Positions 40,444-63,034 of a DNA stretch of 64,000 bases are shown here, one piece after another. Position 1 is the first letter of the stretch, and the number at the start of each line of letters is the position of its first letter. A program made the translations under genes and the position numbers. Source of the stretch: Erythrobacter sp. (GTDB taxonomy: Bacteria; Pseudomonadota; Alphaproteobacteria; Sphingomonadales; Sphingomonadaceae); contig JAACTC010000007.1 in assembly GCA_009993635.1 (NCBI GenBank), forward strand, positions 1-64,000, in the 5' to 3' direction. The notes beneath the pieces are model-generated. The model was given only the letters and a program-made list of their open reading frames with translations. It searched no databases and was not told where the DNA came from.

Positions 40444-40447
40444 CGGG

Positions 40448-45868: not shown

Positions 45869-46735
45869 ATGACCAAGGTCGAAATCGCGTGGCGCGCGGG
45901 CACCTTGCTGGGCGAAGGTCCGGTGTGGCTGGAAGAGCGGCAGCGGCTGGCATTCGTCGATATCAAGGGCGGGCGCATCTGCCTGTTCGACCCGGTGGGC
46001 GGCACGGGAGAGGACCTTCCCTGCACCGGCCAGCCGAGCTTTATCTATCCTTCGGAAAAGCCGGGCGAACTGGTCTACGGATCGAACCGTTCGCTGCGGC
46101 GGATCGCCGCCGATGGCACCGACACTCTGCTACGCGACATTCCCGCGCCGGAGGGAACGCGCACGAACGATGCCGCGGTGGACCCGGCCGGGCGCCTGTG
46201 GCTGGGAATGTCGCACGATGCGGAGACCGATCCGCTGGGCGGGCTCTACCTGTTCGACGCCGGGCGCATCGGCCAGGTGCTGGGCGATGTCGTGGTACCC
46301 AATGGCCCGGCCATATCCGCCGATGGCATGCTGCTCTACCATGTCGATTCCCCCCGGCGCACGATCTGGCGCTACCGCATTTCGGCAGACGGCACGCTGG
46401 TAGATGGACAGGTGCACATCCGCATCGCGGAAGAGGACGGCTACCCCGATGGCGTCGTGCTCGACAGCGAGGGCTGCCTGTGGGTCTGCCTGTGGCAGGG
46501 CTGGGGCCTGAGGCGCCACGATTCGTCCGGCAGGATGATGCAGCACATCGCCCTGCCCTGCGCACGGGTGACCAAGCTGGCCTTTGGCGGAGCGGACCTG
46601 ACCACCGCCTACGTGACGACGGCGCGCAACGGGCTGTCGGAAGCCGAACTGGAAGAACAGCCCGATGCAGGCAGCCTGTTCGCGTTCGATCCGGGCGTCA
46701 GCGGCCTGCCTGCGGTGCCGGTGAAAACCGACTGA
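45869..46735 (+). CDS. SMP-30/gluconolactonase family sugar lactonase
   Basis: The 288-residue six-bladed propeller has the family signatures LLGEGPVWLEERQRLAFVD, RTNDAAVDPAGRLWLG, VVPNGPAISADG and DGYPDGVVLDSEGCLWV, which carry the metal-binding Glu, Asn and Asp residues. It hydrolyses a sugar lactone to the aldonic acid, here most likely the pentonolactone from the sugar 1-dehydrogenase. The ribosome binding site is AAGGAAGAG. It is divergent from the dehydratase. Confidence 0.9.
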   Translation: MTKVEIAWRAGTLLGEGPVWLEERQRLAFVDIKGGRICLFDPVGGTGEDLPCTGQPSFIYPSEKPGELVYGSNRSLRRIAADGTDTLLRDIPAPEGTRTNDAAVDPAGRLWLGMSHDAETDPLGGLYLFDAGRIGQVLGDVVVPNGPAISADGMLLYHVDSPRRTIWRYRISADGTLVDGQVHIRIAEEDGYPDGVVLDSEGCLWVCLWQGWGLRRHDSSGRMMQHIALPCARVTKLAFGGADLTTAYVTTARNGLSEAELEEQPDAGSLFAFDPGVSGLPAVPVKTD

Positions 46736-46753: not shown

Positions 46754-47713
46754 TCAGCCGGCCACCACTTGCTGGTCCACCACGCCGAATGGCGTCGATC
46801 CGTCCGCAGCACGGCCCACCATACGGACCCGGTCGCCGAAGCGCATGAACTGCGTTTCGATCGCGCCTTTCTCGATCATGTCGATGGCCCGCCGCTCCGA
46901 TATGCAACTGGAACCCACCGTCGCGTAATCGGCATTGGATACCGTGCCAGAGCCGATGATCGTGCCCGCCACCAGATCGCGCGTGCGCGCTGCGTGCGCG
47001 ACCAGTTCGTGGAAGCCGAAAGCCATCTCGCGCCCGTTGGCTGCCCCGAACCGCTGTTCGTTCCAGTCGATCTCCAGTGCCATGCACACGCGCCCGTCCT
47101 GCCAGGCATCGCCCAGTTCGTCGGGTGTGACGGCGAAGGGAGCCATCGAACAGGCGGGCTTGGCCTGCACCCAGCCGAACCCCGTCTTCATCTCGATCGG
47201 GGCGATGGCGCGCAGCGACCAGTCGTTGATCTGCACCACCAGCCTGATGTGCTTCATTGCGTCGGCTGCGGTGGTGCCCATCGGTACGGCATCCAAAATC
47301 ACCCCGAATTCGCCTTCGAAGTCGATCCCGTCAGCCTCGTCGGGCAAGGGGACCGCGTCGGTCGGGCCGTAGAAGCGGTCGGACATGCCCTGATACATCA
47401 GCGGGCGGTCGGTCTCGATCGGATCGAGGCCGAAGGCGATCTGCATCAGCTCGCCGTGCTGACCGAAGGCGGAGCCGTCCAGCCATTGCCAGCTGCGCGG
47501 CATGGGCGCGCGGACGTCGTTTATCTGCTCCCCCTCGCCCGCTGTGAGCTGCGCCGCCGCAGCCTCCAGCGCAGCCTGCCCGCCTTGCCAGTCCTGCATC
47601 AGCGTCAGCAGACTGGGCGCGCCCTCGCCCACCTTCACAGCCCGCTCGCCAGTGGCATCGACCACCGCCAGCGCACCATCGGGCGTGCCGTCGTCCAGCG
47701 TCGCCAGCCTCAT
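46754..47713 (-). CDS. fumarylacetoacetate hydrolase family protein
   Basis: The 319-residue protein carries the FAH core: DFEGEFGVILDAVPMGTTAADAMKHI, IEMKTGFGWVQAKPACSMAPF with metal and substrate residues, and GTIIGSGTVSNADYATVGSSC. It is more like classical fumarylacetoacetate hydrolases than the pentose AraD1 protein in the same window. As the last gene of the aromatic operon it probably hydrolyses or hydrates a ring-cleavage product. It overlaps the cupin gene by ATGA. Confidence 0.87.
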   Translation of the reverse strand: MRLATLDDGTPDGALAVVDATGERAVKVGEGAPSLLTLMQDWQGGQAALEAAAAQLTAGEGEQINDVRAPMPRSWQWLDGSAFGQHGELMQIAFGLDPIETDRPLMYQGMSDRFYGPTDAVPLPDEADGIDFEGEFGVILDAVPMGTTAADAMKHIRLVVQINDWSLRAIAPIEMKTGFGWVQAKPACSMAPFAVTPDELGDAWQDGRVCMALEIDWNEQRFGAANGREMAFGFHELVAHAARTRDLVAGTIIGSGTVSNADYATVGSSCISERRAIDMIEKGAIETQFMRFGDRVRMVGRAADGSTPFGVVDQQVVAG

Positions 47714-48279
47714 TCGGCGAGGCTTTCGTCGAATTCGCCGTCGATCAGCACGAAGCAGATGCGGCAGGTCTTGTCGCTGCGGTTGGCCCAGCCGTGGTTG
47801 GTACCGCGCTGGATCACGATGTCGCCTGCCCGCACGGTGGTTTCGCCTTCGTCCATGATCAGCACCAGTTCGCCTTCAAGCACGATGCCGTAATCGATGG
47901 TTTCGGTACGGTGCATCAGCGCGTGCTTCGCGCCTTGCTTGCCCGCATTGGACGAATGGCCCGCGCCGATTTCCGCAAAGTGCGCGGCGGCCTCTTCCGG
48001 AGTCATGTCGCGGATGCCGTCGCCTTCGGGCGGAATGTCGAGCACGCGGATGCGGGTGCCGTTCTTGGGCGGAGCCAGCACGATACCTTCTTCCGCCGGT
48101 TCACCGCTGGCCGCGTCGATGGGCGCGGGCGTGGCGCGGGTGTTCCATACCTCGTGGAACATCGGCCCGATCGCGCCGCCAACCTGCTGCACGCGCGGCA
48201 CCGCGCCGTCTTCCTGGATGATGGCGCGGCCTTCGCCATCGTGGCCGGTTACGACGCGGCGAACGATCTTGGTTTCCAT
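47710..48279 (-). CDS. cupin-domain protein
   Basis: The 189-residue protein has a C-terminal cupin barrel (about 115-185) with HRTETIDYGIVLEGELVLI, ETTVRAGDIVIQRGTNHGW. The usual metal-binding His and Glu are present in part. The N-terminal half (about 1-90) is rich in charged residues. It may be a small dioxygenase, isomerase or regulator of the operon. It starts at an ATG with AGGACAT-like ribosome binding. Confidence 0.8.
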   Translation of the reverse strand: METKIVRRVVTGHDGEGRAIIQEDGAVPRVQQVGGAIGPMFHEVWNTRATPAPIDAASGEPAEEGIVLAPPKNGTRIRVLDIPPEGDGIRDMTPEEAAAHFAEIGAGHSSNAGKQGAKHALMHRTETIDYGIVLEGELVLIMDEGETTVRAGDIVIQRGTNHGWANRSDKTCRICFVLIDGEFDESLAE

Positions 48280-48338
48280 GTCCTGTGTCCTGTTCGATAT
48301 TGGGGCCTGCCGTTCGCGCGGGCAGGCGTTGTTCGGGC

Positions 48339-49337: not shown

Positions 49338-49399
49338 GCTTATCGAACCGTGTCGGTGGCTTACGCCGGCAGCCTCTATGCGGGAGACGGTCGCTGCGA

Positions 49400-50572
49400 T
49401 CACGCGGTCTGCCCGCCAAGCGTTTCCGCGAACCAGTCGGCCAGCAGGTCGCGGCCATAGGCCATGTTGTCGGCGCCCACATGCTCCACTCCGCCCTCGC
49501 GCTCGGTGAAGATCACCTTCTCGCGACGGGGCGAATTGACCAGCTGGTCGTACAGATCGTCCGCATAGGAAGGGCTGATCTGCCGGTCGTTCGCGCCATG
49601 CGTCACCAGGAACGGCACCTTGATCCGGTCCATGTGGCCGTTGAGGTTCATATCGGCGGACTTTTCCAGGAAATCCTCCTGCCCGTCCGCGCCGAACGCC
49701 CAGTGCACGTGCGCCCAGTAATGCGGCACGGGGTTTTCCCCTTCGCGCTGCATCCGCTTGTCCTGCACCTCGCGCCAGTTGTGGTTCGCGCCCCACACGG
49801 CTCCGCTGGCAAAGCGCGGTTCGTAAGCGACGGCACGCGGCGCGAAGTGGCCGCCCAGCGAAATGCCCGTCATGCCGATGCGGTCGGGATCGACATCGTC
49901 CTGCGCCTCCAGCCAGTCGACCGCCTTGGAAGCCCAGCTTTCGCTGTGCGGATCGACCGGCAGGTTCTGCAGCCGCAGCGCCTCGCCGCTGCCCGGCTGG
50001 TCGACGCACAGCGTCGAGATGCCCCTGCGGGCAAGCTCTTCAGGCAGGCGGGTCCAGTAAAGCAGTTCCTTGCAGCTATCGAGGCCATTGCAAAAAACGA
50101 CGACGGGTCGGCGCGTTTCCGCTGCCGACCCGTCGCCAGTTGCACGCGTGTAGAGCGCCGGCATGGTGCCGTCGGGAAGGGAGATTTCTACACGTTCGCG
50201 ATTGATGCGGCCGAGGCGCGTGGAACGGTCGAAGGCCTCGCGCGCCTTGGCAAAGGTTTCGGTGCGGCCCGGATGGCCGTGGCCCTGCATGCGTTCTGCG
50301 GTGAACAGGTAGAGCGACGCACGCTCAAGCTTGTTGGAGGCAGAAAATGCCCGGCCTTTCGCCTCGTCCTCGGCGGCCAGTTCGAGCAGTTTCTCGCCCA
50401 TCCTGGCCCATTCGCGCATGAAGGCGGGCGTACCCGCGTCCGCGCCTTCGTTCGCCGCGTCCTGGATCGGCTGGCACATATCGACGATCTCGCCGATCTG
50501 CCCGCCGCTTTCCATCGCGATGGCGACGCTGAGATTCCAGATATAGTTCGGAAAAGGAGAATAGAGCGCCAC
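49400..50572 (-). CDS. alpha/beta-hydrolase, possible C-C bond hydrolase
   Basis: The 390-residue cytoplasmic protein has an N-terminal helical extension (about 1-130) and a hydrolase core with VVVFCNGLDSCKELL, nucleophile Ser in IGMTGISLGGHFAPR, and GANDRQISPSYADDLYD and HVGADN for the acid and His. It resembles the FrsA/2,6-dihydropseudooxynicotine hydrolase group, which cleave C-C bonds of ring products. It starts 3 nt after the extradiol-type gene stop, so the pair is tightly coupled. Confidence 0.82.
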   Translation of the reverse strand: MALYSPFPNYIWNLSVAIAMESGGQIGEIVDMCQPIQDAANEGADAGTPAFMREWARMGEKLLELAAEDEAKGRAFSASNKLERASLYLFTAERMQGHGHPGRTETFAKAREAFDRSTRLGRINRERVEISLPDGTMPALYTRATGDGSAAETRRPVVVFCNGLDSCKELLYWTRLPEELARRGISTLCVDQPGSGEALRLQNLPVDPHSESWASKAVDWLEAQDDVDPDRIGMTGISLGGHFAPRAVAYEPRFASGAVWGANHNWREVQDKRMQREGENPVPHYWAHVHWAFGADGQEDFLEKSADMNLNGHMDRIKVPFLVTHGANDRQISPSYADDLYDQLVNSPRREKVIFTEREGGVEHVGADNMAYGRDLLADWFAETLGGQTA

Positions 50573-50575
50573 GAA

Positions 50576-51481
50576 TCAAATCTCCGCCGGGGTGAACAGG
50601 CAGGGATCGGGCGCGGGCTTGGGCATGGTCTGCGGGCCGCCGACCCCGGTGCCCCACTGGTCCATGACCTGCGGTCCGGGCTCGTGCACCTTCGCCTCGT
50701 GCGCTTCGAAGTCCACATCTTCCAGTTCGGACGTGTATTCGACAGCAAAGCCGCCGGGCGTGGTGAAATAGCTGAAGGTATTGTTGCCCGCCGTGTGCCG
50801 GCCCGGGCCCCAGCGCAGCTCCGTGCCGCTTTTCTTCAGCCTGCTGGCACCACGCATCATGTCGTCCACGCTCAGCATGTCGTAAGCCACATGGTTCAGG
50901 CACGGCGGCCCCGGCAGCAGCGCAATGCGGTGATGCGCCTCGTTGCAGCGCAGGAAGCACATGAAGTCGCCGAGCCAGTCGGATACCTTGAAGCCGAGCA
51001 CATCGGTGAAGAACTTCGCCATTGCCTGATGGTCGGGCGAATGCAGCACGATGTGGCTGATCTTCACGGGCATGCCTTCCCAGCGTTCCATCGCGCGCTT
51101 GTCCAGCTTTGCGACATCGGCGCTGATCTCGAACGGCAGGCCATCGGGCGAGAAGAAGCGGAACCCGTACCCGCCGCCGGGGCCGTCAAGATCGCGCGGC
51201 TCGTGCACGATCTTGCAGCCCGCATCGCTCACACGGCGATGCAGCGCGTCCACATCCTCGCGGTTGTCCGCCGCCAGCGCGATGACCTCCACGCAATTGC
51301 TGTCGCGCTTGTGCAGGCGCACGACGTGATGTTCGTCATGGCCGTGGGTCTTGAACCATACCGTGTCATCATCGGCGTCGACTTCGACCAGGCCCCAGTC
51401 GTCGGTGTAGAAATTGCGTTCGGTGTCGAGATCCTCGACCCCGTATCCGACATAGCGGATTTCCGTCACTCGGGCATTCAT
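50576..51481 (-). CDS. two-domain VOC (extradiol-dioxygenase-like) protein
   Basis: The 301-residue protein has two vicinal oxygen chelate units, the second containing KISHIVLHSPDHQAMAKFF (His), LNHVAYDML (His) and FAVEYTSELE (Glu). This is the three-residue Fe(II) pattern of type I extradiol dioxygenases. It would open a catechol-type ring. The ATG at 51481 has GAGGA at good spacing; an in-frame TTG 15 nt upstream is less likely. Confidence 0.87.
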   Translation of the reverse strand: MNARVTEIRYVGYGVEDLDTERNFYTDDWGLVEVDADDDTVWFKTHGHDEHHVVRLHKRDSNCVEVIALAADNREDVDALHRRVSDAGCKIVHEPRDLDGPGGGYGFRFFSPDGLPFEISADVAKLDKRAMERWEGMPVKISHIVLHSPDHQAMAKFFTDVLGFKVSDWLGDFMCFLRCNEAHHRIALLPGPPCLNHVAYDMLSVDDMMRGASRLKKSGTELRWGPGRHTAGNNTFSYFTTPGGFAVEYTSELEDVDFEAHEAKVHEPGPQVMDQWGTGVGGPQTMPKPAPDPCLFTPAEI

Positions 51482-51492
51482 GGGCAGCGTCC

Positions 51493-52626
51493 TCAAATTG
51501 GTTGGGAAACCACGGCGAACATTTCCTCCGTGGCTTGATGATTGTCGATTTGCGGGCCGCGGCCGGTCTGGCCGTGGCAGATGGCGAGGCTGCTTTCGAC
51601 GATGTAGCGGCAGCGTTCTAAGCGGCGGTCGCGGTAGGCGGCAAAGGCCTGTTCGGGCGTGTCGGCCTTAGCCAGTTCCTCGGCCAGAACGATCGCGTCC
51701 TCGATCGCCATTCCGGCCCCCTGCCCAAGGTGCGGCGTGGTCGCGTGGACGGCATCGCCCAGCAGCACGATCCGCCCCCGATGCCAGTCCCCATCCAGCA
51801 GCAGGGTCTCGAGCGGGCGATAGACCACTTCCGCGTCGTCGGTAATGTCGTCGGCCAAGGCGCGGATGGCGGGGGAGGCATCCTGCAGGTGCGCGCGCAT
51901 CCTGCCCGCCATCCCTGCCCGCTCCTCACGCGCGTTCTCATCCGCCGGGGTGGTGACGAACATGTACATCGTGCCCGGCCCCATCGGCACGAGGCCGACA
52001 CCGATCCGGCCATTATATACCTGCAACGCGTCCATCCCCTGCGGACGCCGCAGATTGTAGCGCCACACCGCCTGGCCGGTGAATGCGGGCTGCGGCGCAT
52101 CGGGAAACAGCGTGGCGCGCATCTGCGAAGCGATGCCATCGGCGCCGATCACCAGATCGTAGCGGCCGTGCGTCCCATCAGAGAATGCGACATCTACGCC
52201 TTCACCATCGTCGACAAGCGATTGCGCCGTCACACCCAGGCGGATCTGCGCCCCACGCTCTCTTGCGGCATCCGCGAGTACGCGCTGCAATTCGCGGCGA
52301 CCGATACCGACATTCGCGGGCTTGCCTTCGACCAGCCCGCGCGCAGGCACGCGGGCAAGCTTCGTCCCATCGGGCGCGAAAATCTCCACTGCGTCGAACC
52401 CGCTGGCGGCGTCCAGAAAAGAATCGAGCACACCCAAACGATCCATCGCCCGAACCACGTTGGCCTGCTGGATAATCCCGACGCCGTAGACCGACCATTC
52501 GGGATCGCGTTCGATCACGGTGACCCTTGCATCCGTGTCGCACAGGGCGATTGCAGCGGCCAGGCCGCCGATGCCCGCACCGACCACTAAGATTTCAGGG
52601 CTTTCCACTCGGTCCTCTCCGACCAT
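51493..52626 (-). CDS. FAD-dependent aromatic monooxygenase
   Basis: The 377-residue flavoprotein has the Rossmann start ILVVGAGIGGLAAAIAL, the DG motif YDLVIGADGIASQMR and the FAD ribityl motif GRIVLLGDAVHATTPHLGQGAGMAIED. This set defines single-component hydroxylases of the salicylate/6-hydroxynicotinate type. It would hydroxylate an aromatic ring using NAD(P)H. It is the first gene of a six-gene operon and has a TTARAATGA..CTTCTA operator just before its start. Confidence 0.9.
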   Translation of the reverse strand: MVGEDRVESPEILVVGAGIGGLAAAIALCDTDARVTVIERDPEWSVYGVGIIQQANVVRAMDRLGVLDSFLDAASGFDAVEIFAPDGTKLARVPARGLVEGKPANVGIGRRELQRVLADAARERGAQIRLGVTAQSLVDDGEGVDVAFSDGTHGRYDLVIGADGIASQMRATLFPDAPQPAFTGQAVWRYNLRRPQGMDALQVYNGRIGVGLVPMGPGTMYMFVTTPADENAREERAGMAGRMRAHLQDASPAIRALADDITDDAEVVYRPLETLLLDGDWHRGRIVLLGDAVHATTPHLGQGAGMAIEDAIVLAEELAKADTPEQAFAAYRDRRLERCRYIVESSLAICHGQTGRGPQIDNHQATEEMFAVVSQPI

Positions 52627-54275: not shown

Positions 54276-55550
54276 ATGGGAGAGACAGCTTTGGAAACCG
54301 CCAACCCAGCCACGCGCACGCCGGGAATCCCGCAAGGGCTGACCGTGATTCTTGCCGGGTTCCTGCCGATCCTTGCGATCGTTTCGATGTTCCCGGCCGT
54401 GGGCGCGATGATCGGGCATTTCGCGCCGACCGATCCCACTGCGCCGACCAAGGTGCCGTCCATGGTGACGGCCCCAGGCCTGGCAATCGCGGTGACGGCG
54501 CTTTTCATGGGGATGCTGGTCGATAAGTTCGGGCGGCGCAAACTGCTGCTGGTGTCGACGTTTTCCTACGGAATTATCGGGGTGATCCCCTTTTTCCTCG
54601 AAGATCTGGACTGGATCTACGCCTCTCGCCTGCTGTTGGGCTTCAGCGAGGCCGCCATCCTGACAACGGTCAACACGCTCATCGCCGATTACTGGGCCGA
54701 AGAGGGCCGCCGCCGCTGGCTGACGTTGCAAGGCATGGTCGGCCCTGCGCTCTCTTCGATCATGATCTTCTTCGCCGGCACACTCGCGGCCTGGAAATGG
54801 AACGGAATTTTCCTGCTCTATCTCGTCGCGATTCCCATCGCCATCGCGATGTGGCGCTACATGTACGAACCGGAAAGCGATGCGACCGTGCGCCGCAATC
54901 TGGGCATGGACGAAGCGCACAGCGGGATAGCGTCTTTCCCCTGGGCCAGCGTTCTGGGAATCGCGGTGCTCACCCTGTTCAGCTCCGCAATCTACTACGT
55001 GTTCATCGTCAACGGCTCGGTGGTTTGGGAAGAGCTGGGCATTGCCGATCCGGAAAGCATCGGTCAGATTACCGCCTTGCCCAGCCTGTTCATTCTGGCC
55101 GGTGCGGGAATCTTCTGGCTGCTGGGCCGCAAGGGCTTCAGCTTCCGCGTGCAGGTGGCGACGTTCCTCGCCCTTCTGGGTGCCGGATTGGCACTCATGG
55201 GTCTGACATCGAACTGGCAGGGAATGATCGCCGGAATGGCACTGCAACAAACGGGCGCGGGTATGACCGTCATTACCCTGATCGCCTGGGCGCAGAGCCG
55301 GCTGCCGTTCCAACATCGCGGGCGCGGCATGGGCGTGTGGACGGCGACCTTCTTCTTCGGCCAGTTCTCCTCCCCCCTGCTGGTCAGCCTGCTGCGTACC
55401 GAGATGGGGTCGATGCAGGCTGCCTTCCTGGCGATGGGGCTGACATCGGTCGTCGGGGCAGTCATCGTGCTCCTGATCCTCGGCCGCAACAACACGCCGA
55501 CGGAGGAAACCGTGGTCGAAACCGCAACTGAGAACGCGAAGGTGCCCTGA
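54276..55550 (+). CDS. MFS transporter (aromatic acid or sugar-acid type)
   Basis: The 424-residue protein has twelve predicted membrane segments and the MFS loop signature GMLVDKFGRRKLLLV near residue 80. The second half ends in a polar tail. The ATG at 54276 gives MGETALETAN; an in-frame TTG at 54291 is preceded by GGGAGAG and could be the real start. The shared operator and divergent layout suggest uptake of the compound degraded by the neighbouring operon. A strong terminator follows. Confidence 0.85.
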   Translation: MGETALETANPATRTPGIPQGLTVILAGFLPILAIVSMFPAVGAMIGHFAPTDPTAPTKVPSMVTAPGLAIAVTALFMGMLVDKFGRRKLLLVSTFSYGIIGVIPFFLEDLDWIYASRLLLGFSEAAILTTVNTLIADYWAEEGRRRWLTLQGMVGPALSSIMIFFAGTLAAWKWNGIFLLYLVAIPIAIAMWRYMYEPESDATVRRNLGMDEAHSGIASFPWASVLGIAVLTLFSSAIYYVFIVNGSVVWEELGIADPESIGQITALPSLFILAGAGIFWLLGRKGFSFRVQVATFLALLGAGLALMGLTSNWQGMIAGMALQQTGAGMTVITLIAWAQSRLPFQHRGRGMGVWTATFFFGQFSSPLLVSLLRTEMGSMQAAFLAMGLTSVVGAVIVLLILGRNNTPTEETVVETATENAKVP

Positions 55551-55671: not shown

Positions 55672-57363
55672 CTAGATCAGGTTTTCCTTCAGCAGACCCA
55701 CCGCCCGGTCCGCCGCTCTTGCCGTCAGCGCCATGTAGGTGAGCGAGGGGTTCTGGCATGCAGACGAGCTCATCTGCGCACCGTCGGTGACGAACAGGTT
55801 GGGCACATCGTGCGCCTGGCTCCACCGGTTCAGCACGCTGGTGGCAGGGTCCCAACCCATGCGCGCACCGCCCATTTCGTGGATCGCGCCGCCGCCTGCT
55901 CCCGGCTGGTCGAAGCCCATAATCACATGCCCGCCCGCCTCGGTCAGCATGGCAGCCGAATCCGCCTTGGCCTGCGCCAGTGCAGCCTGCTCTTCCTTGC
56001 CGAAGGCGAACGCGATGTTGAGCTGCGGAATGCCATGCGCGTCCGTTTTCGTGCGGTCCAGCGTCAGCCGGTTGCGGGCGCGCGGCACGCAGTCGGCGAA
56101 GGCCACCAGCACGACGCGCCATGGCCCCGGGGGACGCAGCGAGTCCTTGAAATCGACGCCCACACCGGGTTCGCGCTTGCCGCGCGTCCAGCCCGATTGC
56201 AGCGCCCCGCCCTGGAACGAGAAGCCACGCGTGTGCCCTTCGCCGTCCATTTCGTCCATATTGCGATAGCGTGCGATGACCACGCCCGTCGGGCGGTTTC
56301 CGTAGGTCGTCACATCCTCGAACCCCGGCATGATCGCCATCGCCGAAAGCGTGGACGGGTGATCCATGATATGCGTGCCCAAAACGCCGCTCGAATTCGC
56401 AAGCCCGCCGGGCATCGCCTCGCTGGCGGAATTCATCATCAGCTGGACGGAATTGAAGCTGCCCGCGTTGAGGAACACCATCCGCGCACCGGCGCGGCTG
56501 CGTGTACCGTCCTTGCTGTCGACCCACCGCACGCCGGTGACCCGGTTGGTGGCAGGATCGTAATCGACCTTCTCCACGATCGCATCGGTCACGAGCGTGA
56601 GGTTGCCGGTCGCTTTCGCGGCGGGCAGCGTGCTCGACTGGGTGGAGAAATAGGCACCGTAGGAACAACCGCGCGCGCAGATAGAGCGCGCCTGGCACTG
56701 CCCCCGCTCACCCAGCGGCTGGGTGAGGTTCGCCGTGCGGCCAACGGTCAGCACCCGTTCGGGCCAGCGTTGCCGAATCCGCTCGCGGGTGGCGCGTTCT
56801 ACCGCGTTGAGCGCCCAGGGGGGCTGGAACTGGCCATCGGGCAGTTGCGGCAGGCCTTCCGCCGCTCCGGCCACGCCGATGAATTCCTCCACCTTGTCGT
56901 ACCAGGGCGCCACGTCCTCGTACCGGATCGGCCAGTCGGTGCCGTGGCCATCGCGCTTGTTGGCTGCGAAGTCGTAGTCCGACCAGCGATAGCTCTGGCG
57001 GCCCCAGGTCAGCGACCGACCACCCAGGTTATAGCTGCGGAACCAGTTGAAATCCGTGCCCGGCGCCGTCTGATAGGGGTTGAGCCGGTCGTTGACGAAA
57101 TGACCCTGCGTGTACTCCGTGAAGTGGCGATTGAGCATCTGCACGGGATGCTCGCGCTTCCACTCCTCGGCATCGCCGCTGCCGCGAAACGGCATGTCCC
57201 ACGGCTTTTTCATCTCGGTGTCGTAGCCGGTCTGGTGGGGGATATCGCGCCCCCGCTCCAGCATCAGCACCTTCAGGCCCGCCTCGGTCAGTTCCTTCGC
57301 CGCCCAGCCGCCGGTAATGCCGGAGCCGACGACGATGGCGTCGAATTGCGCAGTATCTACCAT
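55672..57363 (-). CDS. GMC-family FAD oxidoreductase (sugar 3-dehydrogenase type)
   Basis: The 563-residue flavoprotein has the FAD motif VVGSGITGGWAAKEL (13-18 GSGITG), ARGCSYGAYFS in the middle, the active-site His in AIHEMGGARMG, and Asn in ACQNPSLTYMAL near the C-terminus. It has no own Tat signal; with the adjacent small subunit, it fits the two-subunit membrane-associated dehydrogenases that oxidise gluconate, sorbitol or, in many gut and sphingomonad clusters, C3 of sugars. It overlaps the small subunit stop/start. Confidence 0.85.
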   Translation of the reverse strand: MVDTAQFDAIVVGSGITGGWAAKELTEAGLKVLMLERGRDIPHQTGYDTEMKKPWDMPFRGSGDAEEWKREHPVQMLNRHFTEYTQGHFVNDRLNPYQTAPGTDFNWFRSYNLGGRSLTWGRQSYRWSDYDFAANKRDGHGTDWPIRYEDVAPWYDKVEEFIGVAGAAEGLPQLPDGQFQPPWALNAVERATRERIRQRWPERVLTVGRTANLTQPLGERGQCQARSICARGCSYGAYFSTQSSTLPAAKATGNLTLVTDAIVEKVDYDPATNRVTGVRWVDSKDGTRSRAGARMVFLNAGSFNSVQLMMNSASEAMPGGLANSSGVLGTHIMDHPSTLSAMAIMPGFEDVTTYGNRPTGVVIARYRNMDEMDGEGHTRGFSFQGGALQSGWTRGKREPGVGVDFKDSLRPPGPWRVVLVAFADCVPRARNRLTLDRTKTDAHGIPQLNIAFAFGKEEQAALAQAKADSAAMLTEAGGHVIMGFDQPGAGGGAIHEMGGARMGWDPATSVLNRWSQAHDVPNLFVTDGAQMSSSACQNPSLTYMALTARAADRAVGLLKENLI

Positions 57364-57995
57364 CAGCCGAACTCCACCGCGGTCCAGTCGCTCGACCAGG
57401 CCCGCGTATTTGGCCCCATCGGCAGGGCGGGATCGAAGCGGCCCGGCGTCAGCTCGAACCGCAGTTCCTGCGATCCGCCGACTTCGGACGTGTAATATCC
57501 CAGAAGGATCAGCCCCTTGATCGCCCGCCAGGGATGCGCATCCGCGCCCTCCGCGAAGGCCTCGGCGTCGATCCGGGCGACCAGATCGTGCAGACCCGCG
57601 TCATCGCGGCGCAGGAAGTCGCCATTGCCCATCCGGCTCAGCGTCCCCTCCAGCCAGTCGACATAGCGCACGCTGCCATCGCGCCGCTGATATTGCGGCA
57701 CCGCCCAGGGTATCTCGGCCGATCCGGCGGGTTCGCGTGTGCCGTCGAGCCCGTGGGCCAGTGCCAGGATCACGAAGTCGCCCACACCCACATCGCCCGC
57801 GCCGGGCGTGTCGGTCGCAGGCAGCACGGCCTGGCTGACGCGCCGCATCATTTCGCGCTGGCGGTCGGTGGGCGCCTCGCTTGCGTCGAGGTCGGACAAG
57901 GAAACACCCGCCACGGGTACGCCGATGGCGAGTGCCAGCAGCGCCGCGCCGCGCAGGAAGTCGCGCCGCTGCCAGGAGCCTTCGGTTTGCGACAC
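57363..57995 (-). CDS. gluconate 2-dehydrogenase subunit 3 family protein (Tat-exported)
   Basis: The roughly 210-residue protein has a twin-arginine signal (RRDFLRGAALLALAIG) and a small all-helical domain typical of the third subunit of membrane-bound gluconate dehydrogenase and of small subunits of GMC dehydrogenases (RRVSQAVLPATDTPGAGD). It is thought to carry the large flavoprotein through the Tat system and hold it in the periplasm. A GTG at 57995 is preferred; a TTG at 58004 is possible. It follows the TIM-barrel gene after one base. Confidence 0.85.
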   Translation of the reverse strand: MSQTEGSWQRRDFLRGAALLALAIGVPVAGVSLSDLDASEAPTDRQREMMRRVSQAVLPATDTPGAGDVGVGDFVILALAHGLDGTREPAGSAEIPWAVPQYQRRDGSVRYVDWLEGTLSRMGNGDFLRRDDAGLHDLVARIDAEAFAEGADAHPWRAIKGLILLGYYTSEVGGSQELRFELTPGRFDPALPMGPNTRAWSSDWTAVEFG

Positions 57996-57996
57996 G

Positions 57997-59052
57997 TCAG
58001 CCAATTCCCATGATCCGCTTGTTGAGTTCGCGATCCGCACCGCCCGCGGCGAAATCGTCGAACGCATGCTCGGTAACACGGATGATGTGATCCCGGATGA
58101 ACGGGGCGCCTTCGGCTGCGCCCTGCTCGGGATGCTTCAGCGCGCATTCCCATTCGAGCACCGCCCAGCCATCGAAATCATTGGCCGCCATCTTGGAGAA
58201 GATGCCGCCGAAATCGACCTGTCCATCGCCCAGCGAGCGGAACCGCCCCGCGCGATCGACCCAGCTCTGGTAGCCGCCATAGACGCCCTGCCGCCCGGTC
58301 GGGTTGAACTCGGCATCCTTCACATGGAAGCAACGGATGCGATCGCGGTAGATGTCGATGAAGTCGAGGTAATCGAGCTGCTGCAGCACGAAGTGGCTGG
58401 GATCGTACAGGATGTTCGCGCGCGGGTGGTTTCCGACCCGTTCGAGGAACATTTCGAAGGTGACACCGTCGTGCAGATCTTCGCCGGGGTGGATCTCATA
58501 CGCGGCGTCGACGCCTTGTTCGTCGAAATGATCTAGGATCGGCTTCCAGCGGCGGGCGAGCTCGTCGAAGGCGTCTTCCACCAACCCGGCGGGACGCTGC
58601 GGCCAAGGATAGACGTAAGGCCATGCGAGCGCGCCGGAGAAGGTGGCATGCCGGTCCAGCCCCAGACGGCGGCTGGCCGTTGCCGCCTTCTTCACCTGGT
58701 CGACCGCCCATTCCTGCCGCGCTGCAGGATTGCCGCGGACATGCTCTGCCGCGAACCCGTCGAACATCGCATCATAGGCCGGATGCACTGCGACAAGCTG
58801 GCCCTGAAGGTGGGTGGACAGTTCGGTGATGGTCAGCCCGTGGCCCTGTGCCACGCCCGCAACCTCGTCGCAGTAATCCTGGCTCTCCGCAGCCTTGTCC
58901 ACATCGAACAGGCGGCCATCCCAGCTGGGGATCTGAATGCCCTTGTAGCCGTGGCCGGCCACCCATTGGCAGATCGCGTCCAGCGAATTGAAAGGCGCAT
59001 CGTCGCCCGCGAACTGGGCCAGAAAAATGGCTGGCCCCTTGATCGTCCTCAT
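57997..59052 (-). CDS. sugar phosphate isomerase/epimerase-type TIM-barrel protein
   Basis: The 351-residue protein is an AP-endonuclease-2-like TIM barrel. It has the metal-binding Glu in AYEIHPGEDLHDG, NILYDPSHFVLQQLDYLDF, the HVKDAEF strand and WAVLEWECALKHP. In 3-keto-sugar clusters such proteins act as isomerases or lyases on 3-keto-glycosides. The ATG at 59052 has a GGGAG ribosome binding site. Confidence 0.85.
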   Translation of the reverse strand: MRTIKGPAIFLAQFAGDDAPFNSLDAICQWVAGHGYKGIQIPSWDGRLFDVDKAAESQDYCDEVAGVAQGHGLTITELSTHLQGQLVAVHPAYDAMFDGFAAEHVRGNPAARQEWAVDQVKKAATASRRLGLDRHATFSGALAWPYVYPWPQRPAGLVEDAFDELARRWKPILDHFDEQGVDAAYEIHPGEDLHDGVTFEMFLERVGNHPRANILYDPSHFVLQQLDYLDFIDIYRDRIRCFHVKDAEFNPTGRQGVYGGYQSWVDRAGRFRSLGDGQVDFGGIFSKMAANDFDGWAVLEWECALKHPEQGAAEGAPFIRDHIIRVTEHAFDDFAAGGADRELNKRIMGIG

Positions 59053-59069
59053 GCTCGTTCTCCCGAATT

Positions 59070-60185
59070 TTATATTTTGAGCTCGGTCCAGCCTGCATCC
59101 TCGGCATTGGCGCGCACGCAGGTATCGATGAAGGCCATCGATCGCAGGCCCTCGTCCAGCCCCGGCAGCATGTTCGCTGCCTTGCCGCGCAATACGCCGG
59201 CGAAATCGCGATAGAGGTTGGCGAATGCCTCCAGATAGCCTTCCGGGTGCCCGCCGGGGATCCGCGTCATCGCGGTGGCGGCCGCACCCAGCGAGGCATC
59301 GGCGGCGCGCACGATTTCGGTCGTGCCGTCGGCCTTGTGCCAGATAAAGGAATTGGGCTCTTCCTGCCGCCACGCCATGCCGCCATCCGCGCCATAGACG
59401 CGAATGCGCAGGCCGTTCAGTTCGCCCAGCTCGATCTGGCTGGCCAGCAAGACGCCGCGCATTCCGCCATCGAACCGCAGCAGGACGGTGCAGTCGTCAT
59501 CCAGCCGGCGGCCCGGCACCACGGCTGCCAGATCGGGCATCACCTGGTTCACCCGGGTGCCCGTGACGAATTCGGCAAGATTGAAGGCGTGCACCCCGAT
59601 GTCGCCGATGCAGCCGCCCGCGCCCGCCAGTTCGGGATCGACACGCCATTCGGCCTGCTTGCCCTCGGCCTCGCCCGCCAGCCAGCCTTGCGGGTATTCG
59701 ACCACCACCTTGCGCAACTGGCCCAGCGCACCGGCGGCAATGCGATCGCGCATTTCGCGCACCAGCGGGTAGCCGGTGTAGGTAAAGGTGAGAGCGAAAG
59801 GCATCTGCGCCTCTCGCGCGACGTAGGCCAATTCGCGCGCCTGCGCCATCGTGGCCGTCATCGGCTTGTCGCAGATGACCGGCAGGCCAGCCTGCAGCGC
59901 CGCGCGGGCGGATGGCAGGTGATTGTGATTGGGAGTGACCACCGCAACGAAATCGATCCCGTCGTCGCGCTGCTTCTCCGCCGCCAGCATCTGCGCAAGG
60001 TCCGCATAGCCGCGATCTTCCTCGATCCGGTAGGATCGCGCGGCCTCGCGGCTGCGCCCGGCATCGGTGGAAAACGCACCGGCAACCAGCTCTATCTCGC
60101 GGTCAAGCTCTGCTGCGATACGGTGAACCGGCCCAATGAACGAACCGGGCCCACCGCCCACCATCCCCATACGAAGACGCCTCAA
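59070..60185 (-). CDS. Gfo/Idh/MocA-family oxidoreductase
   Basis: The 371-residue protein has an NAD(P)-binding start MGMVGGGPGSFIGPVH, DKPMTATMAQARELA and the GCIGDIGVHAFNLAEFVTG segment of the second domain. It starts at a TTG (60185) preceded by GGGAGAG; an ATG five codons on is possible. It belongs to the operon with the TIM-barrel, Tat small subunit and GMC genes and would reduce or interconvert a keto-sugar. It is divergent from xylB. Confidence 0.87.
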   Translation of the reverse strand: MRRLRMGMVGGGPGSFIGPVHRIAAELDREIELVAGAFSTDAGRSREAARSYRIEEDRGYADLAQMLAAEKQRDDGIDFVAVVTPNHNHLPSARAALQAGLPVICDKPMTATMAQARELAYVAREAQMPFALTFTYTGYPLVREMRDRIAAGALGQLRKVVVEYPQGWLAGEAEGKQAEWRVDPELAGAGGCIGDIGVHAFNLAEFVTGTRVNQVMPDLAAVVPGRRLDDDCTVLLRFDGGMRGVLLASQIELGELNGLRIRVYGADGGMAWRQEEPNSFIWHKADGTTEIVRAADASLGAAATAMTRIPGGHPEGYLEAFANLYRDFAGVLRGKAANMLPGLDEGLRSMAFIDTCVRANAEDAGWTELKI

Positions 60186-60217: not shown

Positions 60218-60266
60218 ATTCTAATTTGATAGCGCGGGAATTTCAAGAGCCATAAGGGTGAGTGGG

Positions 60267-61724
60267 ATGTATCTGGGGATCGACCTCGGCACCTCCGGGG
60301 TGAAAGCTGCCGTGCTGGCCGGGGATGGCCGCACCATGGCCACCGCCAGCGCCCCACTATCCGCTTCGCACCCGCGATCGGGCTGGTCCGAACAGGATCC
60401 CGAGCACTGGTGGGCGGGCACCGACGCCGCCGTTCTGGCGATCGATCCGGCATTGCGCAGCGCGGTGCGGGGTATCGGCTTGAGCGGGCAGATGCACGGC
60501 GCCACACTGCTCGACGATGCGGATCGGGTTCTGCGCCCCTGCATCCTGTGGAACGACGGGCGCAGTGCCGCCCAGTGCCGGGCGCTGAAGCAGGCCGAAC
60601 CGGCGGTGGAAGAGATCACGGGCAACCTCGTGATGCCCGGTTTCACCGCGCCCAAGCTGCTCTGGGTAAGGGACAACGAGCCCGAAATCTTCGCCCGGAT
60701 AGCCACCGTCCTGCTTCCCAAGGACTATCTGCGGCTGCGGATGACGGGCGCCAAGGTCTCCGACATGTCGGACAGCGCGGGAACGCTGTGGCTCGACATG
60801 GCGAAGCGCGACTGGTCCGACGCGATGCTCGCCGCCTGCGGGATGGATCGCCGCCAGATGCCGCGCCTGCACGAAGGGCCGGAGATCACGGCGACGCTGC
60901 GTCCCGAAGTCGCAAGCGCGTGGGGCATGGAGCGCGTGCCGGTGGTCGCCGGTGGCGGCGACAATGCCGCCGGGGCGGTCGGCGCGGGCGTCGTGAACCC
61001 GGGTGATGCCTTCCTCTCGCTCGGCACGTCGGGCGTCACTTTCGTGGCGACGGAAAGCTACCGGCCCAATTCGGAGGGTGCGGTGCACACCTTCTGCCAT
61101 GCCCTGCCCGGACGCTGGCACCAGATGGCGGTGCATCTATCCGCCGCGTCGTGCATCGACTGGGCGATGCGCCAGCTCGGCGCGCCCGATGCGGCGGCAT
61201 TCCATGCGCTGGCACAGAGCGTGGAGCCCTTTGGCGGGCCGGAGATATTCCTGCCCTTCCTCAGCGGCGAGCGCACGCCGCACAATGATCCCGACATTCG
61301 TGCTGGCTGGTTACGCTGCGATTCATCGACACAGCCAGCGCGGCTTGCGTCGGCAGTGCTGGAAGGCGTCGCCTTCGCTTTCGCCGACGGGATCGAGGCA
61401 TTGCGCAATGCCGGCTCGCCGGTGGAGGAGGCAATGATGATCGGCGGCGGCGCGCGCTCGCGCCACTGGGGCACCATCCTCGCCAGCAGCACCAGAACGC
61501 GCCTGCTCTACGGCAACGAAGCCGAAGCCGGTCCGGCGGTGGGCGCGGCGCGGCTCGCACTCGCCGGAGTTTCGCGCGCGTCGGTCGAGAGCATTTGTCC
61601 GAAGCCCGATACCGTTTTCGTCGCGGAGCCGGACGAGGCGCTGGCAAACCGGCTCGCCCCCAATCTTTCCTACTACCGGCGTGCCTACGGCGCGCTCTCA
61701 TCCATCGAGGACACCGAGCAATGA
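60267..61724 (+). CDS. xylB: xylulokinase
   Basis: The 485-residue FGGY kinase starts MYLGIDLGTSGVKA and has SGQMHGATLLD, WNDGR, GGGDNAAGAVGAG and FLPFLSGERTPHNDP, which define xylulokinases. It phosphorylates D-xylulose to the 5-phosphate for the pentose phosphate pathway. The ATG at 60267 matches the usual start of the family; a GTG nine bases upstream is possible. It overlaps xylA by ATGA. Confidence 0.95.
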   Translation: MYLGIDLGTSGVKAAVLAGDGRTMATASAPLSASHPRSGWSEQDPEHWWAGTDAAVLAIDPALRSAVRGIGLSGQMHGATLLDDADRVLRPCILWNDGRSAAQCRALKQAEPAVEEITGNLVMPGFTAPKLLWVRDNEPEIFARIATVLLPKDYLRLRMTGAKVSDMSDSAGTLWLDMAKRDWSDAMLAACGMDRRQMPRLHEGPEITATLRPEVASAWGMERVPVVAGGGDNAAGAVGAGVVNPGDAFLSLGTSGVTFVATESYRPNSEGAVHTFCHALPGRWHQMAVHLSAASCIDWAMRQLGAPDAAAFHALAQSVEPFGGPEIFLPFLSGERTPHNDPDIRAGWLRCDSSTQPARLASAVLEGVAFAFADGIEALRNAGSPVEEAMMIGGGARSRHWGTILASSTRTRLLYGNEAEAGPAVGAARLALAGVSRASVESICPKPDTVFVAEPDEALANRLAPNLSYYRRAYGALSSIEDTEQ

Positions 61725-63034
61725 GCACCACTTTTTTCGACGACCTGCCGAGCATTCGCTTCGAAGGCACGGATAGCGAGAACGACCTCGCCTATCGCTG
61801 GTACGACAAGGATCGTCTGGTGATGGGCAAGCGCATGGAAGACCATCTGCGCTTCGCCGTGTGCATGTGGCACACCTTCTGCTGGCCGGGCAGCGATGTG
61901 TTCGGCGCGGGCACCTTCGACCGGCCGTGGCACGCAGGTGCCAACGATGCCGCAGCGGCGCGCACCAAGCGCGAGGCCGCACTCGCCTTCGTCGAAAAAC
62001 TCGACCTGCCGTTCTACTGTTTCCACGATGTCGACGTGATGGCCGATGCCGAAACCATCGGCGATTTTCGCGCCAGCTTCGCCGAGGCGGTCGACCATCT
62101 GGAAGAATTGCAGGGCCAGCATGGCCGCAGGCTGTTGTGGGGTACGGCGAACCTGTTCAGCCACCCGCGTTACATGGCAGGCGGCGCCACCAACCCCGAC
62201 CCCGAAGTCTATGCCTGGGCCGCCAGCCAAGTGCGCGACTGCCTTGAAGCGACCCATCGGTTGGGCGGCCAGAACTACGTTCTGTGGGGCGGGCGCGAAG
62301 GCTACGAGACGATCCTGAACACCGAGATCGGCACGGAGATGGACAATTTCGGCCGCTTCCTGAACCTTGTGGTCGACCACAAGCACCGCATCGGTTTCGA
62401 TGGTGCGATCCTGATCGAACCCAAGCCGCACGAGCCGACCAAGCACCAATACGACTTCGATACGCAGAGCGTTTACGCCTTCCTGAAGCGGTACGGCCTG
62501 GAGGACGAGGTCAAGGTCAACATTGAGGCCAACCATGCCACGCTGGCGGGCCACGCCTTCGAACACGAACTGGCGATGGCGCGCACGTTGGGCATTCTTG
62601 GTTCGGTCGATGCCAACCGGGGCGACCCGCAGAACGGGTGGGATACCGATCAATTCCCCAATTCGGTCGAGGAATGGACGCTGGCGATGCTGGAATGGCT
62701 GCGCGCGGGCGGCTTCACGACCGGCGGGTTCAATTTCGATGCCAAGGTCCGCCGCCAGTCGATCGATCCGCAAGATCTGATGCTGGGCCATATCGGCGGA
62801 GTCGATACGATCGCGCGCGGCCTGCTGAATGCGGAAAAGCTGCTGTCCGATGGTAAGCTGGAGGCGTTTCGTGAGGAGCGTTATGCCGGCTGGCAGGACG
62901 ATCTGGGCCAGATGATCCACGCGCCCGATACCAGCCTCGCCGACATCGCCGACCACGCGGTAAAGGCCGACCTGGCTCCCCAGCGCAAATCCGGCCGCCA
63001 GGAATGGTGCGAGAATATCGTCAACCGCGTTTGA
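61721..63034 (+). CDS. xylA: xylose isomerase
   Basis: The 437-residue TIM-barrel enzyme has FHDVDV with the catalytic His, VLWGGREGYE, ILIEPKPHEPTKHQYD with metal-binding Glu, NIEANHATLAGH, DANRGD and GGFNFDAKVRR with metal-binding Asp. It interconverts D-xylose and D-xylulose and works with xylB. The gene starts inside the xylB stop (ATGA). The length equals that of long class II isomerases. Confidence 0.96.
   Translation: MSTTFFDDLPSIRFEGTDSENDLAYRWYDKDRLVMGKRMEDHLRFAVCMWHTFCWPGSDVFGAGTFDRPWHAGANDAAAARTKREAALAFVEKLDLPFYCFHDVDVMADAETIGDFRASFAEAVDHLEELQGQHGRRLLWGTANLFSHPRYMAGGATNPDPEVYAWAASQVRDCLEATHRLGGQNYVLWGGREGYETILNTEIGTEMDNFGRFLNLVVDHKHRIGFDGAILIEPKPHEPTKHQYDFDTQSVYAFLKRYGLEDEVKVNIEANHATLAGHAFEHELAMARTLGILGSVDANRGDPQNGWDTDQFPNSVEEWTLAMLEWLRAGGFTTGGFNFDAKVRRQSIDPQDLMLGHIGGVDTIARGLLNAEKLLSDGKLEAFREERYAGWQDDLGQMIHAPDTSLADIADHAVKADLAPQRKSGRQEWCENIVNRV

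What the first reader, a model, noticed from the sequence alone, without database searches (positions are those of the whole stretch)
55672..60185. 3-keto-sugar module embedded in a pentose locus
GMC flavoprotein, Tat-exported small subunit, TIM-barrel protein and Gfo/Idh oxidoreductase are the four components described for pathways that oxidise sugars or glycosides at C3 before cleavage. Their place next to xylAB and a GH3 enzyme suggests a route acting on xylosides or related oligosaccharides, which to my knowledge is not a standard combination.
Basis: inference. Interest (0 to 1): 0.72.

Follow-up and report, generated by a model that had tools for sequence, protein, structure and literature searches.

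The report
C-glycoside-eating gene locus, not xyloside
This stretch of an Erythrobacter-like bacterium's genome belongs to a longer gene cluster that includes a close relative of the enzyme pair known to break carbon-carbon-linked sugars off plant compounds, and the cluster likely lets the bacterium oxidise such a sugar, cut it off, and eat both the sugar and the aromatic remainder.

Summary
The four genes are real and form one tight run: Gfo/Idh, TIM barrel, Tat-type small subunit, GMC flavoprotein. The TIM barrel is 71.7% identical to PDB 8ro4, "2-hydroxy-3-keto-glucal hydratase", so a 3-keto-sugar route is well founded. A cleaving enzyme begins 1.5 kb past the window end: a C-glycoside deglycosidase alpha/beta pair (alpha matches PDB 8qvc_A, E 5e-107, with all seven reported metal or catalytic residues kept; beta is Pfam CGDB, E 5e-39), next to the GH3 gene. 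In 296 genomes of the order, GMC proteins at least 72% identical to the window's occur in all 12 genomes with CGDB and in 0 of 284 without. Two close named relatives carry the cluster in the same order (one lacks the FAD monooxygenase), without xylAB between GH3 and Gfo/Idh, running into gene families used to cleave flavonoid A-rings. Best reading: aryl C-glycosides, probably flavonoids, are oxidised at C3 by a two-subunit dehydrogenase, cleaved, hydrated and reduced, and the aglycone is degraded next door. The pentose link is looser but real: hydratase and xylA co-occur across the order. Known chemistry in a new combination; substrates, export and electron acceptor are untested.

The parts
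55672..57363 (-). GMC flavoprotein, predicted catalytic subunit of a glycoside 3-dehydrogenase
   Evidence: Pfam GMC_oxred_N/C; full-length PDB matches are fructose and glucose dehydrogenase large subunits, E 2e-41 to 7e-40; only C-terminal matches to the glycoside 3-oxidases PsG3Ox and MtCarA; proteins >=72% identical are in exactly the 12 CGDB genomes of 296
57363..57995 (-). Small subunit, Gluconate_2-dh3, with twin-arginine motif; predicted export partner of the GMC subunit
   Evidence: Pfam PF13618 1.5e-18; QRRDFLR motif read from sequence; no PDB relative
57997..59052 (-). TIM-barrel protein, predicted 2-hydroxy-3-keto-glucal hydratase (HYD)
   Evidence: 251 of 350 aligned residues identical to PDB 8ro4
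59070..60185 (-). Gfo/Idh/MocA oxidoreductase, predicted NAD(P)H-dependent 3-keto-sugar reductase
   Evidence: Pfam; PDB 3v5n 1e-101; within 1 kb of HYD in 77 of 80 loci
60258..61724 (+). xylB, xylulokinase
   Evidence: TIGR01312 528 bits, cut-off 380
61721..63034 (+). xylA, xylose isomerase
   Evidence: TIGR02630 642 bits, cut-off 533; not between GH3 and Gfo/Idh in L053 and L133
63089..64000 (-). GH3 glycoside hydrolase, cut by the window end (whole gene C9:63089-65476). Directly beyond it on the contig, same strand, lie the C-glycoside deglycosidase beta subunit (C9:65484-65876) and alpha subunit (C9:65891-66901), which belong to the system but are outside the window
   Evidence: GH3: Pfam Glyco_hydro_3_C, Fn3-like on the 303 residues inside the window, gene call. 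Beta: PF19906 CGDB 5e-39, PDB 8qvc_B 8e-23, DgpB 1e-14. Alpha: PDB 8qvc_A 5e-107, 7bvr 3e-40; E142, H144, D174, H258, K260, E294, E296 invariant in own plus the 120 best-listed of 1407 homologues
54276..55550 (+). MFS transporter, possible importer of the oxidised glycoside
   Evidence: Pfam MFS_1 (on the longer ORF); a homologue of at least 44% identity in 12 of 19 CGD regions
51493..52626 (-). FAD-dependent monooxygenase, predicted aglycone hydroxylase
   Evidence: NCBIfam PRK06847 466 bits, cut-off 372
50576..51469 (-). Extradiol (VOC) dioxygenase, predicted ring cleavage
   Evidence: Pfam Glyoxalase; HpaD and catechol dioxygenase models below cut-off; PDB 3b59 6.5e-151
49400..50572 (-). 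alpha/beta hydrolase like 2,6-dihydroxypseudooxynicotine hydrolase
   Evidence: PDB 8qd7 9e-14, 2jbw 2.5e-13; relative at E <= 1e-80 in 12 of 12 CGDB genomes, 17 of 284 others
47710..48279 (-). Cupin
   Evidence: Pfam Cupin_2
46754..47713 (-). Fumarylacetoacetate hydrolase family protein
   Evidence: Pfam FAA_hydrolase 2.6e-31

Best explanation
The four genes likely work as the sugar-handling half of a catabolic cluster for aryl C-glycosides (probably C-glycosyl flavonoids), together with a C-glycoside deglycosidase pair encoded just past the window end and a predicted aromatic ring-cleavage operon beside them. Predicted steps: (1) the GMC subunit, carried across the membrane by the Tat-type small subunit, oxidises the 3-OH of the sugar and passes electrons to the respiratory chain (inferred); (2) the 3-keto-glycoside enters the cell through an MFS carrier (inferred); (3) CGD alpha/beta breaks the C-C bond by metal-assisted beta-elimination, giving aglycone and 2-hydroxy-3-keto-glucal (inferred from family and kept residues); (4) the TIM-barrel hydratase adds water to give 3-keto-glucose (inferred from 71.7% identity); (5) Gfo/Idh reduces it to glucose (inferred); (6) FAD monooxygenase, extradiol dioxygenase, C-C hydrolase, cupin and FAH-family protein open and degrade the aglycone's A-ring, as in fde/ifc pathways (inferred from family set), with a protocatechuate-type cluster further along. 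GH3 and XylAB would deal with extra O-linked sugars or with pentosyl substrates.
For: Identity of parts. Phyletic coupling in the same 296 genomes of the order: GMC >=72% in 12 of 12 CGDB genomes and 0 of 284 others, next GMC homologues <=53%; 11 of 14 such GMC genes, own included, lie within 14 kb of a CGDB gene; the C-C hydrolase in 12 of 12 against 17 of 284, hydratase in 10 of 12 against 39 of 284, and non-self hydratases >=79% identical in CGDB genomes 8 of 8, below that 1 of 40. Conserved order in named relatives: Aurantiacibacter zhengii, Croceicoccus marinus plasmid; same genes together on the Novosphingobium PP1Y plasmid. Second set: 7 of 8 plasmid records with GMC >=69% also carry CGD alpha. 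Published: GlycDH, co-expressed with a TAT-pathway signal protein, oxidises vitexin, isovitexin, orientin, puerarin and nothofagin (PMC10628242, section 6 and passages); ifcA FAD monooxygenase, ifcB glyoxalase-type dioxygenase, a dihydroxypseudooxynicotine-hydrolase-like protein and cupins form one isoflavone cluster (PMC11069340, passages).
Against: No activity is shown. The Novosphingobium capsulatum plasmid carries the Gfo/Idh-hydratase-small subunit-GMC unit (GMC 76%) with no CGDB on that record (its chromosome was not searched). In Sphingobium TomTYG65 the CGD genes stand on the other strand, about 4.5 kb from the hydratase and 14 kb from GMC, outside the run that joins the sugar and aromatic genes. 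So O-glycosides may be the basic substrates. 3 of 9 plasmid records with CGD alpha >=85% lack a close GMC on that record. 2 of 12 CGDB genomes have no hydratase match, and in a third it is 306 kb away. The C-C hydrolase is over 40 kb from CGDB in 4 of 12. 6 of 19 fetched CGD regions hold neither module. Hydratase relatives are far more widespread than CGD (49 against 12 of 296; also SAR11). The 72% line was drawn after seeing the gap, and related genomes are not independent. No c-type cytochrome domain turned up in the 39 proteins scanned with Pfam, so the electron acceptor is unknown.
Confidence: 0.7

Rival explanations
1. The module is mainly for flavonoid or phenolic O-glycosides: GMC oxidises them at C3, the keto-glycoside falls apart on its own or through an unseen eliminase, and the CGD pair is a side branch.
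For: Sphingobium TomTYG65 and Novosphingobium capsulatum carry the sugar module without CGD in the same run of genes. Oxidised O-glycosides are reported to deglycosylate without enzyme (PMC12724307, discussion read). Published GlycDH has broad O-glycoside activity (PMC10628242, section 6).
Against: The GMC subfamily tracks CGDB without exception in 296 genomes, and CGD, GH3 and the module are contiguous in the closest named relatives.
Confidence: 0.35
2. One reading: GH3 and the 3-keto module act on xylosides or xylo-oligosaccharides, feeding XylAB.
For: xylA and hydratase co-occur (27 of 49 against 14 of 247); xylA is near the hydratase in 13 of 78 loci without CGDB; genes resembling an oxidative pentose pathway lie at 39.7-46.7 kb; beta-xylosidase models are among the weaker GH3 matches.
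Against: No glycoside hydrolase family other than GH3 matched among 39 proteins scanned with Pfam; xylAB is missing from the operon in the two closest named relatives; the locus runs on into aromatic ring cleavage; the GH3 part inside the window matches beta-glucosidase and alpha-arabinopyranosidase models best, all below cut-off.
Confidence: 0.1
3. Gfo/Idh is the oxidant (a DgpA-like NAD enzyme) and the GMC pair serves something else.
For: DgpA of gut bacteria is an NAD-dependent enzyme paired with CGD (PMC12724307, discussion); DgpA structures are among the Gfo/Idh matches.
Against: Similarity to DgpA is weak (best 9m37, E 5e-11, against 3v5n 1e-101); Gfo/Idh accompanies the hydratase in 77 of 80 loci, 78 of the 80 without CGDB in the fetched flanks, as a reductase would; GMC tracks CGDB without exception.
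Confidence: 0.06

Closest known systems
Agrobacterium tumefaciens GlycDH-OGE-HYD-Gfo glycoside pathway (PMC10628242)
   Same: GMC dehydrogenase of the kind expressed with a Tat protein, hydratase (71.7% identical to 8ro4) and Gfo reductase; oxidation, elimination, hydration, reduction
   Different: The eliminase recognised here is a CGD alpha/beta pair; no OGE was recognised; the locus continues into predicted aglycone degradation and carries GH3 and xylAB
Soil C-glycoside pathways CarABC / PurABC / PsG3Ox-CGD (PMC12724307, PMC10646112, PMC8563793)
   Same: CGD alpha/beta partnered with an FAD-dependent GMC-superfamily enzyme
   Different: Known partners are oxidases using oxygen; here a dehydrogenase-type GMC with a Tat-type small subunit, plus separate hydratase and reductase genes
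Gut DgpABC puerarin pathway (PMC12724307)
   Same: CGD pair of the same family
   Different: Oxidant there is NAD-dependent DgpA
fde (Herbaspirillum) and ifc (Variovorax) flavonoid A-ring pathways (PMC11069340)
   Same: FAD monooxygenase, glyoxalase-type dioxygenase, DHPON-hydrolase-like protein, cupin in one cluster
   Different: Here joined to C-deglycosylation genes; sequence identity to FdeE, FdeC, IfcA, IfcB not measured
Caulobacter LacABC plus DUF1080 3-keto-lactose pathway (PMC9007349)
   Same: A three-component membrane-bound dehydrogenase oxidising glycosides at C3, with sugar epimerase and reductase genes nearby; that LacA and LacB are GMC and small subunit is recalled
   Different: No DUF1080 protein in this genome; no cytochrome domain among the neighbours scanned

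Membership tests
C-glycoside deglycosidase (CGD) | beta subunit of family CGDB/DUF6379 | tested here: met
   PF19906 E 5e-39; 8qvc_B, DgpB, DfgB, AgCarC2
C-glycoside deglycosidase (CGD) | TIM-barrel alpha subunit encoded side by side with beta | tested here: met
   8qvc_A 5e-107; gap 14 bases
C-glycoside deglycosidase (CGD) | metal ligands E, D, H, K, E and catalytic H and E | tested here: met
   E142, D174, H258, K260, E294, and H144, E296; invariant in 121 rows; roles from PMC8563793 passages, mapped by eye through the alignment to PuCGD alpha
C-glycoside deglycosidase (CGD) | cleaves 3-keto C-glycosides | not testable with these tools
   needs assay
A. tumefaciens-type four-enzyme glycoside pathway | 2-hydroxy-3-keto-glucal hydratase | tested here: met
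   251 of 350 identical to 8ro4; by sequence only
A. tumefaciens-type four-enzyme glycoside pathway | GMC dehydrogenase with Tat protein partner | tested here: met
   architecture only, GlycDH's own sequence was not compared
A. tumefaciens-type four-enzyme glycoside pathway | O-glycoside beta-eliminase (OGE) | tested here: inconclusive
   4 PF01261 proteins in the genome: hydratase, XylA, CGD alpha and TIM3; TIM3 matches hydroxypyruvate-isomerase- and epimerase-like proteins and by eye reads E-P-L where OGE has H-x-H; OGE sequence not held
C-glycoside oxidase (CarA/PurA/PsG3Ox) | full-length similarity to these GMC oxidases | tested here: not met
   PsG3Ox 7qf8 matches only residues 428-554 (3e-8) and MtCarA 7dve 420-552 (5e-8), against fructose dehydrogenase large subunit over 3-560 (2e-41) (entries identified)
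DUF1080 3-keto-glycoside hydrolase pathway | PF06439 protein | tested here: not met
   0 in the genome, 99.94% complete
fde/ifc flavonoid A-ring cleavage | FAD monooxygenase, VOC dioxygenase, DHPON-hydrolase-like protein and cupin together | tested here: met
   family level only
fde/ifc flavonoid A-ring cleavage | orthology to FdeE, FdeC, IfcA, IfcB | not tested
   their sequences were not held here

The most novel reading that the evidence does not exclude
A third, respiration-coupled way to consume C-glycosides: a periplasmic two-subunit GMC dehydrogenase makes the 3-keto C-glycoside outside the cytoplasm, a CGD pair splits it inside, a dedicated hydratase and reductase return the sugar, XylAB and GH3 take pentosyl decorations, and a flavonoid A-ring operon consumes the aglycone, so that one locus of Erythrobacteraceae and Novosphingobium mineralises C-glycosyl flavones completely.
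Probability: 0.42. Interest if true: 0.72.

Novelty: new variant of a known kind. Interest (0 to 1): 0.6.

Why it matters
[quoted passage not shown] CGD homologues in Proteobacteria and marine bacteria were already noted (PMC8563793, passages), but which oxidant and which downstream enzymes go with them there I did not find in print. This locus names a testable set of genes in named relatives (Croceicoccus marinus, Aurantiacibacter zhengii, Novosphingobium PP1Y), gives a candidate oxidant that would not use oxygen as its direct acceptor (inferred), marked by a clean phyletic signal, and links sugar removal to aglycone breakdown in one cluster. It also corrects the xyloside reading of the window.

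Tried and rejected
Rejected: the DUF1080 route (none in the genome); GMC as an oxygen-using glycoside 3-oxidase; TIM3 (C9:70794-71561) as the missing O-glycoside eliminase (and motif by eye; not excluded); xylAB as a fixed part of the operon; Gfo/Idh as the oxidant.

Led nowhere: single-sequence structure prediction of the small subunit (mean pLDDT 34.6; not used); PDB search of the small subunit (no real match); paper searches for a report of this combination (listings seen) gave none in the open library held, which lacks most subscription papers. A 2024 paper on the Agrobacterium hydratase is recalled and did not appear. The Chem Commun 2026 paper PMC13273386 was read in part 1 of 3 and is not leaned on.

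Dropped before counts: 19 of the 26 CGDB hits were fetched as centres; own and the six weakest (E 8e-14 to 6e-10) were not. L062 was left out of the hydratase tree because it appeared to be the same contig as L038; only matches of at least 330 residues entered that tree. In it all 10 CGD-linked hydratases fall in one group of 12 (support 99/94); the other 2 have no CGD seen in the fetched flanks.
Full report
WHAT IS THERE. The window is bases 1-64000 of a 312-kb contig (C9) of a 2.92-Mb genome, 99.94% complete. The four genes of the finding are real and read, in order of transcription on the minus strand, Gfo/Idh (59070-60185), TIM barrel (57997-59052), small subunit (57363-57995), GMC (55672-57363), with gaps of 17, 1 and -1 bases. 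The nearest named records are Aurantiacibacter and Croceicoccus (Erythrobacteraceae).

THE TIM BARREL. Its best PDB match is 8ro4, deposited as 2-hydroxy-3-keto-glucal hydratase, E 9e-178; 251 of 350 aligned residues are identical, 71.7%. In Agrobacterium tumefaciens a four-enzyme pathway oxidises a glycoside at C3 (GlycDH), eliminates the aglycone (OGE), hydrates the 2-hydroxy-3-keto-glucal (HYD) and reduces 3-keto-glucose to glucose (Gfo) (PMC10628242; abstract, sections 6, 7, 8 and 14 and passages read). That paper calls the evidence for the hydratase preliminary; the PDB entry carries the name. GlycDH was expressed with a TAT-pathway signal protein, oxidises vitexin, isovitexin, orientin, puerarin and nothofagin, and is at least 100-fold more active with ferricyanide than with oxygen (same paper). 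The window's GMC plus small subunit has that architecture; the sequences were not compared. The GMC matches the large subunits of fructose and glucose dehydrogenase over its whole length (E 2e-41 to 7e-40), and the glycoside 3-oxidases PsG3Ox (7qf8) and MtCarA (7dve) only in the C-terminal part.

A CLEAVAGE ENZYME. The DUF1080 family seen with LacABC (PMC9007349, passages) is absent from the genome. The genome has four AP_endonuc_2 proteins, all on this contig: the hydratase, XylA and two just past the window end. One of these (C9:65891-66901) is a C-glycoside deglycosidase alpha subunit: 8qvc_A E 5e-107, PuCGD near 3e-40. The next gene (65484-65876) is the beta subunit: Pfam CGDB 5e-39, 8qvc_B 8e-23, DgpB 1e-14. 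The residues reported as metal ligands and catalytic in CGDs (PMC8563793, passages) correspond, by eye through the alignment to PuCGD alpha, to E142, D174, H258, K260, E294, and H144 and E296 here; all are invariant in own plus the 120 best-listed of 1407 homologues. The GH3 gene follows beta after 7 bases.

COMPARATIVE TEST. The same 296 genomes of the order were searched for CGDB, hydratase, C-C hydrolase, GMC and xylA (proteins at E <= 1e-80). CGDB is in 12, own included. GMC proteins at least 72% identical to the window's are in exactly those 12 and in none of the other 284; the next homologues are at 53% or less, although 62 of 296 have some GMC relative. Of 14 such GMC genes, own included, 11 lie within 14 kb of a CGDB gene, one at 31 kb, two on contigs without one. 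The C-C hydrolase is in 12 of 12 against 17 of 284, but over 40 kb from CGDB in 4 of the 12. The hydratase is in 10 of 12 against 39 of 284, in one of the 10 at 306 kb. Eight of 8 non-self hydratases with 79% identity or more are in CGDB genomes, and 1 of 40 with less. Fisher p-values (1e-21, 7e-14, 3e-7 for GMC, C-C hydrolase, hydratase) overstate the case because the genomes are related, and the 72% line was drawn after seeing the gap. A second, smaller set agrees: of 8 plasmid records with GMC at 69% or more, 7 carry CGD alpha, though these include two pairs of one species; N. capsulatum has no CGDB on that record. In the other direction, of 9 plasmid records with CGD alpha at 85% or more, 6 have such a GMC and 3 do not on that record.

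GENE ORDER. In Aurantiacibacter zhengii and on a Croceicoccus marinus plasmid the cluster is continuous: TIM3, GPH carrier, ThuA, CGD alpha, CGD beta, GH3, Gfo/Idh, hydratase, small subunit, GMC, carriers, FAD monooxygenase (A. zhengii only), extradiol dioxygenase, C-C hydrolase, cupin, FAH, with a few genes on the other strand. xylAB is not there: Gfo/Idh follows GH3 after 96 bases in C. marinus and after about 100 in A. zhengii. In the window xylBA sits on the opposite strand at exactly that junction, so it was inserted into a conserved operon, or lost from it in both relatives. Novosphingobium PP1Y has the sugar, CGD and ring-cleavage genes together. Sphingobium TomTYG65 has small subunit, GMC, carriers, FAD monooxygenase, dioxygenase, C-C hydrolase, cyclase, FAH, Gfo/Idh and hydratase in one run, with CGD about 4.5 kb beyond the hydratase on the other strand. 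Among 19 fetched CGD regions, 10 hold a close sugar-module gene, 6 a close ring-cleavage gene, 13 one or the other, 6 neither. Among 78 hydratase loci without CGDB, none holds a GMC or ring-cleavage gene at 60% identity within the fetched flanks.

THE AROMATIC HALF. Window genes 46754-52626 are FAH family, cupin, two alpha/beta hydrolases, extradiol dioxygenase and FAD monooxygenase. The isoflavone cluster of Variovorax has an FAD monooxygenase, a glyoxalase-type dioxygenase, a 2,6-dihydroxypseudooxynicotine-hydrolase-like protein (whose disruption did not affect daidzein degradation) and cupins, similar to the naringenin fde genes of Herbaspirillum (PMC11069340, passages). The window's hydrolase matches that enzyme weakly (2jbw 2.5e-13). 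This is a match of families; FdeE, FdeC and Ifc sequences were not held. A protocatechuate-type cluster (dioxygenase subunits, Lyase_1, CMD/hydrolase fusion, CoA transferase, FAD_binding_3 protein) lies at C9:77859-84149.

THE PENTOSE LINK. Hydratase and xylA co-occur in the order: 27 of 49 hydratase genomes have xylA, 14 of 247 others; for CGDB it is 6 of 12 against 35 of 284. xylA is within the fetched flanks of 13 of 78 hydratase loci without CGDB, among them Sinorhizobium, Azospirillum and Variovorax, and within 6 kb of a CGDB gene in 4 of 12 CGDB genomes. So pentose release from such substrates is plausible (C-pentosides, or xylose on C-glycosides), but a life on plant matter would also explain it.

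MECHANISM AND LIMITS. Shown here: gene content, identities, kept residues, co-occurrence and order. Inferred: C3 oxidation, export of GMC by the small subunit, import of the keto-glycoside, C-C cleavage, hydration, reduction, and the fate of the aglycone. Not known: electron acceptor, substrate, role of GH3, ThuA, TIM3 and sulfatase.

NOVELTY. The CGD papers read here name two oxidants for C-glycosides in organisms: NAD-dependent DgpA, and FAD oxidases such as CarA, PurA and PsG3Ox, with PurABC homologues reported also in Pseudomonadota (PMC12724307, sections 36 and 37; PMC10646112, passages). GlycDH's action on C-glucosides was shown in vitro (PMC10628242). A two-subunit dehydrogenase genetically tied to CGD, with its own hydratase, reductase and ring-cleavage genes, did not appear in the paper searches. 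I rate it a new variant of a known kind.

Noticed in passing
window 39730-46735: A set resembling an oxidative pentose pathway: GntR regulator, Gfo/Idh, GguC/AraD1 family, aldehyde dehydrogenase, a dihydroxy-acid dehydratase related to L-arabinonate dehydratase, and SMP-30 lactonase.
   Followed up: no
C9:77859-84149, past the window: Protocatechuate/beta-ketoadipate-type cluster with a FAD_binding_3 protein of the size of a 4-hydroxybenzoate hydroxylase.
   Followed up: partly
C9:68409-72889, past the window: ThuA family protein, GPH-type sugar carrier, a hydroxypyruvate-isomerase-like TIM barrel and a sulfatase in one run. No sulfatase is annotated at that place in C. marinus; a sulfated substrate is conceivable.
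   Followed up: partly
L075, L079, L081-L083, L087, L092, L095, L102, L117: Pelagibacteraceae (SAR11) records carry hydratase (72-75% identical) and Gfo/Idh side by side, so this 3-keto-sugar step pair may occur in oligotrophic ocean bacteria.
   Followed up: no
L058, L074, L078, L086, L112, L128 and others: Hydratase and Gfo/Idh close to xylA, often with xylB, in Rhizobiales, Azospirillum and Variovorax, with no CGD gene in the fetched flanks.
   Followed up: partly
G186: One genome of the same family has six CGDB genes, suggesting a C-glycoside specialist.
   Followed up: no
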